This document shows, in pieces, positions 37,348 to 49,742 of a stretch of 64,000 nucleotides of DNA. How positions within the stretch are numbered: position 1 is the stretch's first letter; each line of letters opens with the position of its first letter. Under the pieces are notes generated by a model. It saw nothing but the letters and a program-made list of their open reading frames with translations. It was not told the origin of the DNA and searched no databases. Source of the stretch: Streptomyces sp. ISL-12 (GTDB taxonomy: Bacteria; Actinomycetota; Actinomycetes; Streptomycetales; Streptomycetaceae); NCBI RefSeq assembly GCF_018614415.1, contig NZ_JAGGOO010000072.1, forward strand, positions 1 through 64,000, read 5' to 3'. The position numbers and the translations under genes were made by a program.

Positions 37348-39327
37348 TCAGACCTGCGTGCGCTCCTCGACGACCTTGGCGATCTTCGCGATGGCGTCCT
37401 CGACGGGGATGCCGTTCTCCTGGGAGCCGTCGCGGTAGCGGAAGGAGACGGCGCCGGCCGCCATGTCCTCGTCGCCCGCGATGACCATGAACGGCACCTT
37501 CTGCTTCTGGGCGTTGCGGATCTTCTTCTGCATGCGGTCGGAGGAGGCGTCGACCTCGACGCGCAGCCCCGCCGCCCGCGCCTGCTCCGCGAACTCCTGG
37601 AGGTAGGGCACGTGCGCGTCGCCGATCGGGATGCCCAGCGCCTGGACGGGGGCCAGCCAGGCCGGGAAGGCGCCGGCGTAGTGCTCGAGGAGGACGCCGA
37701 AGAACCGCTCGATGGAGCCGAACAGCGCCCGGTGCAGCATGACCGGCTGCTGGCGGGAGCCGTCCGCGGCGGTGTACTCCAGGCCGAACCGCTTGGGCTG
37801 GTTGAAGTCGACCTGGAGGGTCGACATCTGCCAGGAGCGGCCGATCGCGTCCTTGGCCTGCACCGAGATCTTCGGCCCGTAGTACGCGGCGCCGCCCGGG
37901 TCGGGGACCAGCGGGAGGTTCTGCTTCTCGGCGGCCTGGCGCAGCGCCTCGGTGGCCTCCTCCCAGTCCTCGTCCGAGCCGATGAACTTGTCGGAGTCGT
38001 CACGGGTGGACAGCTCCAGCTCGAACTCGGTCAGCCCGTAGTCCCGCAGCAGGTCGAGCACGAAGGTCAGGAGCGTGTCCAGCTCCTGGGGCATCTGCTC
38101 CTTGGTGCAGTAGATGTGCGAGTCGTCCTGGGTGAAGCCGCGCGAGCGGGTCAGGCCGTGCACGACGCCCGACTTCTCGTACCGGTACACGGTCCCGAAC
38201 TCGAAGAGGCGCAGGGGCAGTTCACGGTAGGAACGGCCGCGCGACTTGAAGATCAGGTTGTGCATCGGGCAGTTCATCGCCTTGAGGCGGTAGTTCTGCT
38301 CGTCGAACTGGATGGGCGGGAACATGCCCTCCGCGTAGTGCGGCAGGTGCCCGGAGATCTCGAAGAGGTGCTCCTTCGAGATGTGCGGGGTGTTCACGAA
38401 CTCGTACCCGGAGACCTCGTGCCGGCGGCGCGAGTAGTCCTCCATGACCTTGCGGATCACACCGCCCTTGGGGTGGAAGACCGCGAGGCCGGGGCCCAGC
38501 TCGTCGGGGAAGGAGAACAGGTCCAGCTCGGCGCCGAGCTTGCGGTGGTCGCGCTTCTCGGCCTCGGCGAGGAAGTCCAGGTGCGCCTTCAGCTCGTCCT
38601 TGGACGGCCAGGCGGTGCCGTAGATCCGCTGGAGCTGCGGGTTCTTCTCGCTGCCGCGCCAGTAGGCGGCGGCGGAGCGCATCAGCTTGAAGGCCGGGAT
38701 GTTCCGCGTGGTCGGCAGGTGCGGGCCGCGGCACAGGTCCTTCCAGCACAGCTCGCCGGTCTTGGCGTCGAGATTGTCGTAGATGGTCAGCTCACCGCCG
38801 CCCACCTCCGCGTCGGCGCCGTCGGCGGCCTGCGCGGCGTTGCCCTTGAGGCCGATCAGCTCCAGCTTGTACGGCTCGTCGGCCAGCTCCTCGCGGGCGG
38901 CGTCGTCGCTGGTGACGCGGCGGGAGAAGCGCTGGCCACGCTTCTGGATCTCCTGCATCTTCTTCTCGACGCGCTTGAGGTCCTCCGGGGTGAAGGGCTC
39001 CTTGACGTCGAAGTCGTAGTAGAAGCCGTCCCGGATGGGCGGGCCGATGCCCAGCTTCGCCTCGGGGAACAGCTCCTGCACCGCCTGCGCCATGACGTGC
39101 GCGGTGGAGTGGCGCAGGATGTTGAGGCCGTCCTCGGAGGAGATCTCGACGCCCTCGACGGTCTCGCCGTCCCGCAGCTCGTACGCGAGGTCCTTCAGCT
39201 CGCCGTCCACGCGGGCGGCGACGATCGAGCGCTCGCCGGGGAAGAGGTCGGCGGCCGTGGTGCCCGTCGTCACCACGCGTTCTTCCCGCTCGGAATCGCG
39301 TTGGATGATCACACGGACGTCTGACAC
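37348..39327 (-). CDS. thrS: threonine-tRNA ligase
   Basis: 659 aa. The N-terminal TGS domain ([16 protein letters not shown]) is followed by the editing domain with [11 protein letters not shown] and the metal site near [10 protein letters not shown]. Then comes the class II catalytic core ([47 protein letters not shown]) and the anticodon-binding domain. The start is GTG 39327 (VSDVRVII), supported by AGGAGAG about 7 bp upstream. Regulation is not visible in the 100-bp leader; no clear T-box. Confidence 0.97.
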
Positions 39328-39429
39328 CGGTCTCTCCTGACTGAAGTGGGTCGCGGCGCCATACCGGAGCGCACGCATGAGGGCGATCGTACCGACCCGT
39401 CCCCTCCGCAGGCGAAACAGATACCCGGC

Positions 39430-40647
39430 TCACTCCCCGGCACAGGCATCCTCGAAGAAGTCGAGGTCCTCCTGGAGCGCCTTGAGCATCCGGTCCCGGT
39501 CGGCGTCGTCCACCCGCACGGGCACGACCCCGCCCGCGCCGCTGAGCCGGCGGAAGCCGCCCCGGCTCTCCAGCCGGCCGTCCACCCGCACCGGCAGTCC
39601 GACGAGATGGGCGTGGCCGGCGATGCGGTACGCGTCCTCGTCGAGGGCGACCCGGACGTGCGGGACGTCGGCGCCGGACAGCACCCGCAGCCGTACGGTG
39701 CCCGCGCCGCGCGGTCCCGACCTGCGCATCCGGACGACGGTGCCGGTGAGGCGCACCGGTACGGAGGGTTCGGCGCGCAGATAGCGGGCGCCGGCCTCGC
39801 GCAGGACGGGCAGGTCGCCGGGCGAGAACCCGACGGGCTCGGCGGGGGCGGCGCGGCCCTCGGGGGCTCCGGTGGCCGGGGCCCAGTCGACGGCGATCCG
39901 GGCGCCCTCGGTGCCCTGGACGAGGGCGACGAGCGCCTCGGTGAGTTCATGGCTGACGCCGGCCTCGACGGCGGTGTCGAAGGCGTCCAGGCCGCCGGTG
40001 GCCCGCTGGTAGTCGACGGCCTCGCGGGCCGCGTGGAGGGCCTGGTGGAGGCGGACGGCGAGGGCGCGGCCGGTGGCGACGGGCAGGTACGCGGTGAGGC
40101 GGTGGCCGCCCGGGGCGGGCCCGACCAGGACGTCGGCCAGGGTCCCGGCGGCGGCGCGGCGGTGCCGGGCGCCGTAGTAGCCGGCCCGCGCGTGGGTGGC
40201 GAGCGCTCCGGCGAGCAGCATGCGGCGGGCGGCGGTGCGCAGCTGTTCCGCCGCGGTCCACGCGGTGGCCTCGCCGGGTCCGGCCGGTGCCTCCCGCCAC
40301 CAGTGGATCTCGTCGCTGGGCACGGCGAGGCCGAGCAGCACCTCGCGGGCGGACGGGGTGCCGGCGCGGGTGAGGGCCAGCAGAGCCTCGGCCAGCAGGT
40401 CGTCGCTGTCGGGGAAGGCCCGGCTCTCGGGCACCAGCAGGCTGGTGGCGGCGCCGGCCGGGCCGGGCGGGGTCCAGCGGCCGTAGCGTCCGGGGGCACC
40501 GCCGCGACGCTGCCAGCCGTGCCGGCGCAGCAGGGCGGCGAGTACGGCCGGGTCGACGTCGGCCGGGGCGGGCGGCGGGCCGTCCCAGGAACCGGCGGGG
40601 TGCGGGCGTACCGGCCGCAGCGGCCGGCCGGCGGGGCGGTGCGTCAT
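39430..40647 (-). CDS. unrecognised 405-aa protein with C-terminal OB-like beta domain
   Basis: 405 aa, begins MTHRPAGRPLRPVRPHPAGSW. No family recognised. The N-terminal part (residues 35-110) has LLRRHGWQRRGGAPGRYGRWTPPG then SLLVPESRAFPDSDDLLAEALLALTR. The middle is Ala-rich and helical. The C-terminal 100 residues look like beta strands of an OB or related fold: VRLTGTVVRMRRSG, VRLRVLSG, HVRVALDEDAYRIAGHAHLVGLPVRVDGRL. The ATG overlaps the DUF4365-like stop by 4 bp (ATGA), so it is translationally coupled to that gene and probably works with it. Confidence 0.65.
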   Translation of the reverse strand: MTHRPAGRPLRPVRPHPAGSWDGPPPAPADVDPAVLAALLRRHGWQRRGGAPGRYGRWTPPGPAGAATSLLVPESRAFPDSDDLLAEALLALTRAGTPSAREVLLGLAVPSDEIHWWREAPAGPGEATAWTAAEQLRTAARRMLLAGALATHARAGYYGARHRRAAAGTLADVLVGPAPGGHRLTAYLPVATGRALAVRLHQALHAAREAVDYQRATGGLDAFDTAVEAGVSHELTEALVALVQGTEGARIAVDWAPATGAPEGRAAPAEPVGFSPGDLPVLREAGARYLRAEPSVPVRLTGTVVRMRRSGPRGAGTVRLRVLSGADVPHVRVALDEDAYRIAGHAHLVGLPVRVDGRLESRGGFRRLSGAGGVVPVRVDDADRDRMLKALQEDLDFFEDACAGE

Positions 40648-41210
40648 GGTTTCCCTCCCGTCCCGACCCGCGTCATGATCTCGCACAGCGCCCGGTCGTC
40701 GAAGACCCGTGCGGTCGGCACCCGCACGGTGGTGCGGTGCCGGCCGGTGACGGGATGTCCGGCCAGGTTGATCCAGTAGCAGCAGTGTCTGAGGTCGAGG
40801 CGGTCGTGGCCGGCCCGCAGCCACTGGTCCTGGGAGCGGGGGACGATCATCACGACCAGGATCTTGTGGACCGAGACCGGGGTACGGGCGAGCTTCGCCA
40901 GGTGCGCGTTGTCGAGCGTGAAGGAGAAGGAGCGGCCCGGCGGGTCCGGCGGGATCTGGTACGTCGCCTTGAGCTGCACCTTGATGGTGACCTCGTCGTC
41001 GACGGTGTGCCCGGGGGCGCTGTGGCTGACGTGCCAGTCGATGCCGTTGTCGGGGAACGGCTGGGACAGTGAGCAGCCGGCCGCCGCGGCGACCGCGTGC
41101 AGATAGCCGACCTGGAGTGTCTCCATGCAGGCGGTGACGGCGAGGGACCCGCGGACGGGCGCCGTGCGCTCGGGCAGCAGCCCGCCCCGTTCGGGCTGCG
41201 CTACGGCCAT
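40644..41210 (-). CDS. DUF4365-like protein, putative PD-(D/E)xK nuclease fold
   Basis: 188 aa from ATG 41210 (MAVAQPERGGLLPERTAPVRG). The pattern E30 in TACMETLQVGYLHAVAAAAGC, D58 in DNGIDWH, and Q79-L-K81 in TIKVQLKATYQ matches the E...D...(E/Q)xK layout of PD-(D/E)xK nucleases. DUF4365 domains are reported with this architecture, often fused or next to other nucleic-acid or NTPase domains. DNA or RNA cleavage is an inference. It is cotranscribed with the 405-aa gene and divergent from the DEDDh exonuclease. ATG 41306 is upstream in frame but lacks family similarity. Confidence 0.7.
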   Translation of the reverse strand: MAVAQPERGGLLPERTAPVRGSLAVTACMETLQVGYLHAVAAAAGCSLSQPFPDNGIDWHVSHSAPGHTVDDEVTIKVQLKATYQIPPDPPGRSFSFTLDNAHLAKLARTPVSVHKILVVMIVPRSQDQWLRAGHDRLDLRHCCYWINLAGHPVTGRHRTTVRVPTARVFDDRALCEIMTRVGTGGKP

Positions 41211-41380
41211 GAGCGGGCAGCCTTCCAGAACTGGTGTGTTCGCGCTGCGGGTCGCTGAACTGCGAGGACCCACACTTCTGTTGTGTCCTTCCGGCGTACG
41301 GCGCAAACAGCCCGGGTATCACCCGAGCGGGCAGTGGACGGGATGTCAACTGCCGAGGGTGATCGAGGGGTTGTGGTGGT

Positions 41381-42106
41381 ATGACGGGCTGGTACGAAGG
41401 ACCCCTGGCCGCGTTCGACACGGAGACCACGGGTGTCGACGTCGAGACCGATCGGATCGTGGCGGCCGCCGTCGTCGTCCAGGACGCCCCGGGCCTCCGG
41501 CCGCGGGTCAGCCGCTGGCTGGTCAACCCGGGCGTTCCGGTGCCCGAGGCGGCGACCGCGGTGCACGGGCTGACGGAGGAGCATCTGCGGCGCAACGGCC
41601 GCTGGCCGGCGCCGGTGATGTACGAGGTGGCGGAGGCGCTGGTGGAGCAGGCCCGGGCGGGGCGGCCGCTGGTGGTGATGAACGCGCCGTTCGACCTGAC
41701 GCTCCTCGACCGGGAGTTGCGGCGCCATCGCGCCTCGTCGCTGGGGCGCTGGCTGGAGCGGACGCCGCTGCACGTCCTCGATCCGCGGGTGCTCGACAAA
41801 CACCTGGACCGCTACCGCAAGGGCCGCCGCACCCTCACCGCCCTGTGCGCGCACTACGGCGTCCCGCTGGAGGGGGCGCACGACGCGGCGGCCGACGCGC
41901 AGGCGGCGCTGGAGGTGGTACGGGCGGTGGGGCGCCGGTTCGCGGGGCGGCTGGAGCGTCTCTCCCCCGCCGAGCTGCACACCCTGCAGGCGGTGTGGCA
42001 CGCGGCACAGGCCCGGGGGCTGCAGGCGTGGTTCGCGGCCAGTGGCACGGAGGAGGCGGTGGACCCGGCGTGGCCGCTGCGTCCGGACCTGCCGGCGGCG
42101 GCCTGA
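41381..42106 (+). CDS. DnaQ-like 3'-5' exonuclease (DEDDh)
   Basis: 241 aa. Exo I is FDTETTG (D13, E15). Exo II is VVMNAPFDLTLLDREL (second Asp near residue 104). Exo III is AHDAAADAQAALEV with the His-x4-Asp of the DEDDh class. It resembles stand-alone epsilon-like exonucleases rather than a polymerase domain. The substrate is unknown. It is divergent from the DUF4365-like gene with a 170-bp shared promoter region holding a short dyad (GGCAGT 41330-41335 with ACTGCC 41349-41354). Confidence 0.88.
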   Translation: MTGWYEGPLAAFDTETTGVDVETDRIVAAAVVVQDAPGLRPRVSRWLVNPGVPVPEAATAVHGLTEEHLRRNGRWPAPVMYEVAEALVEQARAGRPLVVMNAPFDLTLLDRELRRHRASSLGRWLERTPLHVLDPRVLDKHLDRYRKGRRTLTALCAHYGVPLEGAHDAAADAQAALEVVRAVGRRFAGRLERLSPAELHTLQAVWHAAQARGLQAWFAASGTEEAVDPAWPLRPDLPAAA

Positions 42107-42158: not shown

Positions 42159-42239
42159 TCCCGGTGGGCGATACTGGGTTCGAACCAGTGACCTCTTCGG
42201 TGTGAACGAAGCGCTCTCCCACTGAGCTAATCGCCCGGG
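42159..42239. repeat. left copy of 81-bp perfect direct repeat containing tRNA-Val
   Basis: 81 bp (42159-42239) identical to 49662-49742, in the same orientation. It covers the whole tRNA-Val(CAC) plus 6 and 3 flanking bases. The two copies are 7,503 bp apart and bracket the SRPBCC gene and the carbohydrate module. Confidence 0.9.
42165..42236 (-). tRNA. tRNA-Val (anticodon CAC)
   Basis: 72 nt, acceptor GGGCGAT/ATCGCCC with discriminator A. The anticodon loop TTCACAC between CTTCG and CGAAG reads CAC. The T-arm has CACTGGTTCGAACCAGT. No CCA encoded. Identical to the copy at 49668. Confidence 0.95.
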
Positions 42240-49661: not shown

Positions 49662-49742
49662 TCCCGGTGGGCGATACTGGGTTCGAACCAGTGACCTCTT
49701 CGGTGTGAACGAAGCGCTCTCCCACTGAGCTAATCGCCCGGG
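49662..49742. repeat. right copy of 81-bp perfect direct repeat containing tRNA-Val
   Basis: Identical to 42159-42239 over 81 bp and in the same orientation; see the left copy. Confidence 0.9.
49668..49739 (-). tRNA. tRNA-Val (anticodon CAC), second copy
   Basis: 72 nt, sequence identical to the tRNA at 42165. The upstream minus-strand TAATGT (49753-49758) is a candidate -10; no clear -35. No CCA encoded. Confidence 0.95.

What the first reader, a model, noticed from the sequence alone, without database searches (positions are those of the whole stretch)
39430..42106. DUF4365-like nuclease, coupled 405-aa unknown protein and divergent DEDDh exonuclease
Seen: a 188-aa protein with an E30/D58/Q79-x-K81 layout is translationally coupled (ATGA) to a 405-aa protein with an OB-like C-terminal domain. 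A DnaQ-like exonuclease gene lies 170 bp away on the other strand. Known: DUF4365 domains are associated with PD-(D/E)xK-type nucleases and sometimes with defence or repair loci. Inference: a nuclease plus DNA- or RNA-binding partner, perhaps with the exonuclease. The location inside a core region also fits a housekeeping repair role.
Basis: partly seen in the sequence, partly recalled or inferred. Interest (0 to 1): 0.6.

Follow-up and report, generated by a model that had tools for sequence, protein, structure and literature searches.

The report
Resident DUF4365 nuclease–sensor defence-candidate pair
Two overlapping genes beside a housekeeping gene in most Streptomyces encode a DNA-cutting-type enzyme and a likely nucleic-acid-binding partner; relatives of the pair travel on plasmids and phages and sit inside known antivirus gene clusters, so this looks like a mobile defence pair that settled into the core chromosome.

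Summary
In detail: a 188-aa DUF4365 protein (A) overlaps a 405-aa protein (B) by ATGA, and a DnaQ-like exonuclease lies 170 bp away on the other strand. The pair is an already catalogued candidate, PADLOC PDC-M02A/PDC-M02B (311 and 594 bits), for which I found no experimental report. A carries the D…QxK active site of the SPARDA DREN nuclease. In 150 family genomes the core A and core B were found in the same 87 (fragments set aside). Divergent pairs occur on plasmids and phages of several phyla and beside DISARM and Druantia genes. The exonuclease is probably not a partner: 0 of 52 non-core loci have it, and 28 of 150 genomes keep it without A-B. The pair has a fixed slot between thrS and the exonuclease, with at least six forced presence/absence changes and one decaying remnant. 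Another family of the order has its own resident copy, whose B lacks the OB fold. Best reading: a mobile nuclease-plus-sensor defence module that became resident at least twice. Antiviral function is inferred, not shown.

The parts
40644..41210 (-). Gene A, 188 aa, DUF4365 (DREN-type PD-(D/E)xK) nuclease, PDC-M02A
   Evidence: Pfam PF14280 73.6 bits; PADLOC PDC-M02A 311 bits
39430..40647 (-). Gene B, 405 aa, partner/sensor protein, PDC-M02B
   Evidence: PADLOC PDC-M02B 594 bits; next to A
40644..40647 (-). ATGA overlap: stop of A and start of B
   Evidence: conserved in 74 of 76 named core loci
41037..41039 (-). Codon of catalytic D58 of A
   Evidence: D in 133 of 133 rows with a letter there (84 core, 28 divergent, 8 f77, 13 mobile)
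40968..40976 (-). Codons of catalytic Q79-x-K81 of A
   Evidence: Q and K in 132 of 133 rows with letters there; same layout as D41/Q60/K62 of SPARDA DREN (PMC12205087)
40291..40551 (-). B N-terminal module (about residues 33-119), the part kept in both shortened forms of B
   Evidence: predicted structure; kept in OB-less f77 copies and in the Nostoc form that lacks the middle
39880..40251 (-). B middle module (about residues 133-256)
   Evidence: predicted structure; absent in Nostoc B
39490..39774 (-). B C-terminal OB fold (residues 292-386), predicted
   Evidence: VIA-align Z 8-10 to SilF, SSB, PriB, RPA, RecO
41381..42106 (+). DnaQ-like DEDDh exonuclease, 241 aa; syntenic neighbour, not a shown part of the system
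   Evidence: NCBIfam NF005927 302 bits
41211..41380 (.). Conserved intergenic region between exonuclease and A (probable divergent promoter region)
   Evidence: 41-row alignment; 94 bp kept at an empty site
37348..39378 (-). thrS (named by reading of the sequence), the fixed downstream neighbour, 51 bp from B

Best explanation
The pair is a PDC-M02 module. A is a DREN-type PD-(D/E)xK nuclease, probably quiet on its own. B is its adaptor and sensor: the N-terminal module probably docks A, and the middle and OB modules probably bind single-stranded or otherwise abnormal nucleic acid of an invading replicon. Binding would then license A to degrade nucleic acid, of the invader and possibly of the host. 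The module is mobile elsewhere (plasmids, phages, DISARM and Druantia loci). In an ancestor of much of the Streptomyces family it settled between thrS and a DnaQ-like exonuclease gene, and it is now a resident, dispensable gene pair. Shown by computation: membership, active site, coupling, co-occurrence, mobility of relatives, fixed position and repeated presence/absence change. Predicted: the OB fold. Inferred: A-B docking, sensing, activation, anti-invader role.
For: PADLOC PDC-M02A/B matches. DREN catalytic layout D..Q-x-K, and the DREN domain alone had undetectable activity (PMC12205087 passages). D58, Q79 and K81 all kept in 132 of 133 rows. Core A and core B in the same 87 of 150 genomes; B beside A in 19 of 19 and 17 of 17 (17 of 22 further divergent A matches were fetched) other chromosomal loci. 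DrmA+DrmB or DruD+DruE beside 9 of 28 non-core pairs, two of the nine nearly identical; DrmA, DrmB, DrmMI and DrmD around one of them (L080, L207); DruH near a Rhizobium plasmid pair. Pairs in a mycobacterial prophage, in Leptospira phage LE1 and on many plasmids. OB fold. Core clade grouped with solitary non-core copies. Loss in place. B diverges faster than A (78.2 against 91.4% mean identity in 77 quartets), as a sensor might.
Against: No experiment; PDC candidates are mostly unvalidated (PMC12988326 passages). 19 of 28 non-core chromosomal pairs showed none of the helicase markers used, several sit among metabolic genes, and I ran no control of random loci. The core copy has no defence system recognised beside it, and the only MZB helicase match in its genome is on another contig. 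Presence in 85 of 104 same-genus genomes is unusually stable for a defence gene. OB folds also bind RNA, proteins and metal ions. The OB fold is missing in the f77 resident copies, so it cannot be needed in all of them. The structure of A was not modelled usefully (pLDDT 40.6). The N-terminal 290 residues of B were not tested alone.
Confidence: 0.62

Rival explanations
1. Domesticated for a host job: the resident copy no longer fights invaders but serves the host, for example in handling single-stranded DNA during replication stress, recombination or chromosome-end maintenance.
For: Fixed slot and one clade of core copies; 85 of 104 same-genus genomes; A as conserved as thrS (91.4 against 91.2%); a separate resident copy in family f77.
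Against: At least six forced presence/absence changes, a remnant, one lineage with a dead active site and empty sites show that it is dispensable.
Confidence: 0.17
2. Housekeeping DNA repair module made of A, B and the DnaQ-like exonuclease.
For: The exonuclease orthologue is present in 86 of 87 genomes with the core pair and in only 28 of the other 63, and the two share a conserved intergenic region.
Against: No DnaQ-like gene in any of 52 non-core loci, 50 of which hold both A and B; 28 genomes keep the exonuclease without A-B; the exonuclease lies next to thrS at empty sites.
Confidence: 0.06
3. RNA- or tRNA-directed abortive nuclease: B's OB fold binds RNA and A cleaves it, so that infected cells stop translation.
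For: DREN is described as a DNA and RNA effector nuclease; aminoacyl-tRNA synthetase OB domains are among the fold matches; the pair sits next to thrS.
Against: The OB matches include SSB, PriB, RPA and RecO as well, so the fold does not choose; no thrS was found near the 19 divergent loci or the 17 further ones.
Confidence: 0.1
4. Toxin-antitoxin or addiction pair, with B restraining a toxic A.
For: Small coupled operon; TA genes near the Gluconobacter and Entomospira copies.
Against: Genomes exist with A intact while B is split or carries a stop (G071, G115, G132, G037, G035, G003), though sequencing error is possible, and the reverse (A in pieces, B whole or nearly so) is also seen (G016, G074); 405 aa is large for an antitoxin.
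Confidence: 0.05

Closest known systems
PDC-M02 (PADLOC-DB v2 phage defence candidate, PDC-M02A + PDC-M02B)
   Same: Both proteins match the family models over their whole length (311 and 594 bits); gene order and coupling
   Different: The window copy is a core-region resident at a fixed place, with no defence locus recognised around it
SPARDA DREN domain (DUF4365 of short-Argonaute systems)
   Same: DUF4365 domain; catalytic D..Q-x-K layout
   Different: Stand-alone 188-aa protein without APAZ; the partner is B, not a short Argonaute
DISARM class 1 and Druantia type I/III
   Same: Some relatives of the pair sit beside these genes
   Different: A-B looks like an addition there: DISARM loci in G092 and G144 still have a PLD-family match right after DrmB; the window has no such genes recognised beside it
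HamAB (Hachiman)
   Same: Two-protein nuclease plus DNA-sensing partner logic (abstract seen in the listing)
   Different: B shows no helicase family; the nuclease family differs (HamA family name recalled)

Membership tests
PDC-M02 (PADLOC) | A matches PDC-M02A over full length | tested here: met
   PDLC04276 311 bits, residues 1-188
PDC-M02 (PADLOC) | B matches PDC-M02B over full length | tested here: met
   PDLC04317 594 bits, residues 7-403
PDC-M02 (PADLOC) | A and B adjacent in one operon | tested here: met
   ATGA overlap; same 87 genomes. Transcription not tested
PDC-M02 (PADLOC) | anti-phage activity | not testable with these tools
   no assay; no paper with the name in the library
DREN / DUF4365 nuclease | DUF4365 domain above curated cut-off | tested here: met
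   73.6 against 24.3 bits
DREN / DUF4365 nuclease | catalytic D, Q and K | tested here: met
   D58, Q79, K81; complete in 132 of 133 rows with letters there; reference D41/Q60/K62
SPARDA system | nuclease fused to APAZ, with a short pAgo gene next to it | tested here: not met
   A is 188 aa with DUF4365 at 34-181; B has no Pfam match beyond chance level
DISARM / Druantia | DrmA/DrmB or DruE helicase genes at the locus | tested here: not met
   neighbours exonuclease, SRPBCC and PcRGLX by Pfam, thrS by reading; only MZB match of the genome is on contig C160. The rest of the window was not scanned against PADLOC
OB-fold proteins (for B) | OB-type fold in the model | tested here: met
   model residues 292-386, Z 8-10 to OB proteins; a prediction only
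OB-fold ssDNA-binding proteins (for B) | binds single-stranded nucleic acid | not testable with these tools
   fold does not show function
Housekeeping repair unit with DnaQ-like exonuclease | exonuclease present with A-B wherever the pair occurs | tested here: not met
   0 of 52 non-core loci, but 86 of 87 core loci

The most novel reading that the evidence does not exclude
A-B is a portable nuclease-plus-recognition module that has been plugged separately into DISARM, Druantia I and Druantia III, and has twice become a permanent, vertically inherited immune (or re-purposed) gene pair in the core genome of the Streptomyces order. B is modular: the OB fold or the middle part can be lost, and only the N-terminal module stays with A.
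Probability: 0.4. Interest if true: 0.7.

Novelty: new member of a known kind. Interest (0 to 1): 0.5.

Why it matters
Most genes of this kind are patchy cargo. Here a catalogued defence candidate, for which I found no experiment, is held by 85 of 104 genomes of the window's genus and 87 of 150 of its family, at one place wherever I looked, with an intact active site, empty sites and a natural dead mutant. That gives a clean test of what the candidate does and of how a mobile defence module becomes resident. If it protects, it would be a basal antivirus layer of an industrially central genus and could affect phage and plasmid work in it.

Tried and rejected
Exonuclease as partner: rejected (0 of 52 non-core loci; 28 of 150 genomes with exonuclease only), with the strong association at the core site (86 of 87) as a result against this. 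A-B as replacement for the DISARM nuclease DrmC: not supported; a PLD-family match lies just after DrmB in G092 and G144, while none was listed near the pair in G026 or G088. RNA element in the region: only a sub-threshold Rfam match (RAGATH-24, 19.9 against 45.3 bits). Solved structure of either protein by sequence: none useful. Structure of A: unusable model, pLDDT 40.6 from 40 nearly identical rows, not searched. The N-terminal part of B could not be folded alone (cap reached), so nothing is said about whether its fold is known. In BFVD one full-length match stood out, a Leptospira phage LE1 protein, confirmed as PDC-M02B beside PDC-M02A. Viral contig scans with two divergent B alignments found no relative; the prophage B gave one fragment. 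B profile over 396 phylum genomes found 10, nine of them of the window's genus; its first look scored only 4 candidates a genome, so it is insensitive. DUF4365 over 396 phylum genomes: 15. LexA-type palindrome between exonuclease and A: looked for by eye, not seen; not a formal test. WblC paper listed for SCO1531: no mention in the main text held. No control of random loci was run for the helicase neighbours.

Literature: 'PDC-M02' in 0 papers, 'DUF4365' in 10, SCO1531-1534 names (recalled, not verified as this locus) in 1, at least three of DREN/OB-fold/nuclease/anti-phage in 8. Subscription papers and most preprints are outside this library, so a characterisation under another name is not excluded. 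Seen: passages of PMC12205087, PMC12988326, PMC10855318; abstract, sections 5 and 8 and passages of PMC12458937; a term search of PMC7157823 without hits; search listings only for the rest.
Full report
What is there. On the minus strand a 188-aa protein A (40644-41210) overlaps a 405-aa protein B (39430-40647) by ATGA; 170 bp upstream, on the plus strand, lies a 241-aa DnaQ-like exonuclease (41381-42106). B ends 51 bp before thrS (37348-39378). The wider window is a core Streptomyces-type region by its recognisable genes (gene names there, thrS included, are my reading of the sequences). That the window's genus is Streptomyces is inferred: 78 of the 80 nearest named core loci bear that name.

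Identity. A matches DUF4365 (73.6 bits) and PADLOC's PDC-M02A (311 bits over the whole protein); B matches nothing in Pfam or NCBIfam above chance level but matches PDC-M02B (594 bits over residues 7-403). PDC names stand for phage defence candidates found by guilt-by-embedding, most of them untested (passages of PMC10855318 and PMC12988326). The name PDC-M02 is in no paper of the library. The exonuclease is NF005927, a DnaQ-like subfamily (302 bits).

Active site. In SPARDA the DREN (DUF4365) nuclease uses D41, Q60 and K62, and DREN alone had undetectable activity (passages of PMC12205087). A has D58, Q79 and K81 at the matching places. All 80 named core orthologues held keep E30, D54, D58, Q79 and K81; these are the closest 80 of at least 526. 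Over four groups, D58 is kept in 133 of 133 rows that have a letter there, Q79 and K81 in 132 of 133 (84 core, 28 divergent Streptomycetales, 8 resident in family f77, 13 of 16 mobile loci; of the other three, two had no A match and one is cut by the record edge). The exception is L093 (genome G008), with D54A, Q79R and K81T and a full-length B. E30 is not universal: DISARM-linked and f77 copies have a glutamate about one helical turn later; D54 is replaced in 2 mobile rows.

B. AlphaFold2 on 75 core rows gave pLDDT 78.0 and pTM 0.60 (one of the 75 rows, L166, is only 47% identical and probably out of frame; two B rows of unusual length and four loci without B were left out). Residues 292-386 match OB folds: SilF Z 10.0 (74 aligned, 2.2 A), S. 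coelicolor small SSB Z 9.2 (83 aligned, 2.9 A), PriB, RPA and RecO about 8; Foldseek's best E was 2.1e-3, none under 0.001. So the OB fold is well supported as a fold, not as a function. In BFVD one match with E under 0.001 was found, Q6NE06 of Leptospira phage LE1 (E 9.5e-15, 388 columns, but TM only 0.42-0.44); in that phage the gene before it is PDC-M02A and it is PDC-M02B. B is modular: in 8 of 8 f77 resident copies the match ends before the OB fold, with no clear remnant downstream (best E 0.0095); in a Nostoc plasmid copy a 175-aa B joins the N-terminal module directly to the OB fold. Only the N-terminal module is in both forms.

Co-occurrence. In 150 family genomes the core A and the core B were found in the same 87 genomes (handles counted). 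In some of these one gene is in pieces or has a stop (B: G003, G035, G037, G071, G115, G132; A: G016, G074), which may be decay or sequencing error. Not counted are G044 and G146, which have about 300 residues of B and no core A, G075 (a B fragment) and G068 (remnants of both). In the order sample 85 of 104 same-genus genomes have an A of 79% identity or more, one of them split over two frames; the site was not checked genome by genome there. Away from the core site, 19 of 19 divergent A genes of the family sample have B next to them, as do 17 of 17 more loci, which are 17 of the 22 divergent matches new.

The exonuclease. It is present in 86 of the 87 genomes with A-B, but 28 genomes have it without A-B, one (G008) has A-B without it, and 35 have neither. 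None of 52 non-core loci (28 divergent, 8 f77, 16 plasmid or phage; some cut short by record ends, two of the 16 without a recognised A) has a DnaQ-like gene. The neighbourhood is best read as shared position. The strong association at the core site speaks for the other view and could also come from joint loss of a segment.

A resident locus with losses. The order thrS-B-A-exonuclease was seen in five genomes of four genus codes of the family (L094-L098; in L097 the automatic gene call merged A with the stretch before it, and the exonuclease is placed), L093 of a fifth genus code has A-B without the exonuclease, and genomes without A-B have the exonuclease next to thrS. On a thrS tree of 57 rows (19 chosen for the contrast, 37 named loci, every second one, and the window; quick method) presence/absence needs 7 changes, at least 6 forced by starred branches; the sample was chosen, so it gives a minimum number of events and no rate. 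L091 still holds decaying pieces of A (136-188) and B (295-375) in the gap, and L092 and L099 hold only a truncated B. In 77 complete quartets mean amino-acid identity is thrS 91.2, A 91.4, exonuclease 85.3 and B 78.2%. The rank correlation of pairwise distances is weak between thrS and A (0.32) and thrS and B (0.44) and better between B and the exonuclease (0.66), so strict vertical descent is not proved.

Mobile and embedded relatives. Pairs or B relatives were found on plasmids of Streptomyces, Paenarthrobacter, Gluconobacter, Methylobacterium, Tistrella, Phaeobacter, Rhizobium, Entomospira, Pusillibacter and Nostoc, B without a recognised A in Pigmentibacter and Ornithinimicrobium, and pairs at the end of a Mycobacterium abscessus prophage and in Leptospira phage LE1. 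Of 28 non-core chromosomal pairs, 5 have DISARM DrmA and DrmB beside them (L065, L069, L075, L080, L224) and 4 have Druantia DruD and DruE (L070, L076, L078, L223); L080 also has DrmMI and DrmD but no PLD-family match on its contig. L223 and L070 are nearly identical and count as one acquisition. The other 19 of 28 showed none of the marker genes used; several sit among ordinary metabolic genes. No random-locus control was run; the window's own genome has a single MZB match, so chance neighbours at this rate seem unlikely. In Rhizobium a pair lies near DruH and an annotated DEAD/DEAH helicase, and in S. aurantiacus near Cas3/CasA. The 970- and 1157-aa genes before DruD matched no PADLOC model (L203, L204). 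DISARM loci in G092 and G144 keep a PLD-type match after DrmB, so A-B is an addition there. PMC12458937 (section 8) reports that the Druantia type I helicase has a predicted inactivated nuclease domain, so A could supply one there; that is inference.

Descent. On a tree of joined A and B proteins (53 rows, quick method, midpoint root) 8 core copies form one clade (100) grouped with solitary copies; 5 f77 resident copies are joined to four of the five DISARM-linked copies (99); the Druantia I copies form one clade (99) among solitary and plasmid copies. So residency arose at least twice if this tree holds. The f77 site is shared by the 8 loci examined, with an MFS gene in 8 and an AlkZ-like gene in 7 of them. 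Four rows have long branches and their places are unsure.

Mechanism and verdict. Shown: a nuclease-type active site under constraint, a coupled and co-occurring partner, mobility and defence context of relatives, a fixed site with repeated presence/absence change. Inferred: B docks A by its N-terminal module and senses nucleic acid of invaders by the variable modules, then licenses cleavage. I put an anti-invader role at about 0.62. The pair is a member of a known candidate family; what is new here is its resident, probably twice-arisen form and the modular view of B. Rivals are a re-purposed host function, RNA targeting, a repair unit with the exonuclease and an addiction pair.

Noticed in passing
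window 42163-42236 and 49666-49739: Two identical tRNA-Val(cac) genes flank a 7.4-kb stretch with a PcRGLX-family gene and genes I read as a sugar ABC transporter; several relatives lack the stretch and have the genes beyond it right after the exonuclease, and four of those checked still hold two such tRNA copies within the same 14 kb.
   Followed up: partly
window 41211-41380: The exonuclease-A intergenic region is strongly conserved in 41 core rows, including a TTGAC box, GGTGATACCCGGGC and GTTTGCGCCGTACGCCGGAAGGA; 94 bp of it survive at 90% identity at an empty site.
   Followed up: partly
window 39379-39429: A CGGTAC(G/C)AT motif upstream of thrS is kept in the window and in the six empty-site rows aligned with it, which suggests that thrS has its own promoter.
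   Followed up: no
L210-L216, L218: A second resident A-B locus in family f77 of the same order, with a B that lacks the OB fold, next to an MFS transporter gene and, in 7 of 8, an AlkZ-like glycosylase gene.
   Followed up: partly
L203:8262-11174, L204:1472-4945: A 970- or 1157-aa gene with no PADLOC match (and no Pfam match for L203) precedes DruD-DruE-A-B in the Druantia-type operons.
   Followed up: no
L093:8073-8636: Natural A with a lost active site (D54A, Q79R, K81T) beside a full-length B, in the only genome of the family sample with the core pair but no exonuclease orthologue.
   Followed up: no
L228:2483-3510: Nostoc plasmid with a DUF4365 gene coupled to a 175-aa mini-B (N-terminal module joined to OB fold), near an integrase and a caspase-family gene.
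   Followed up: partly
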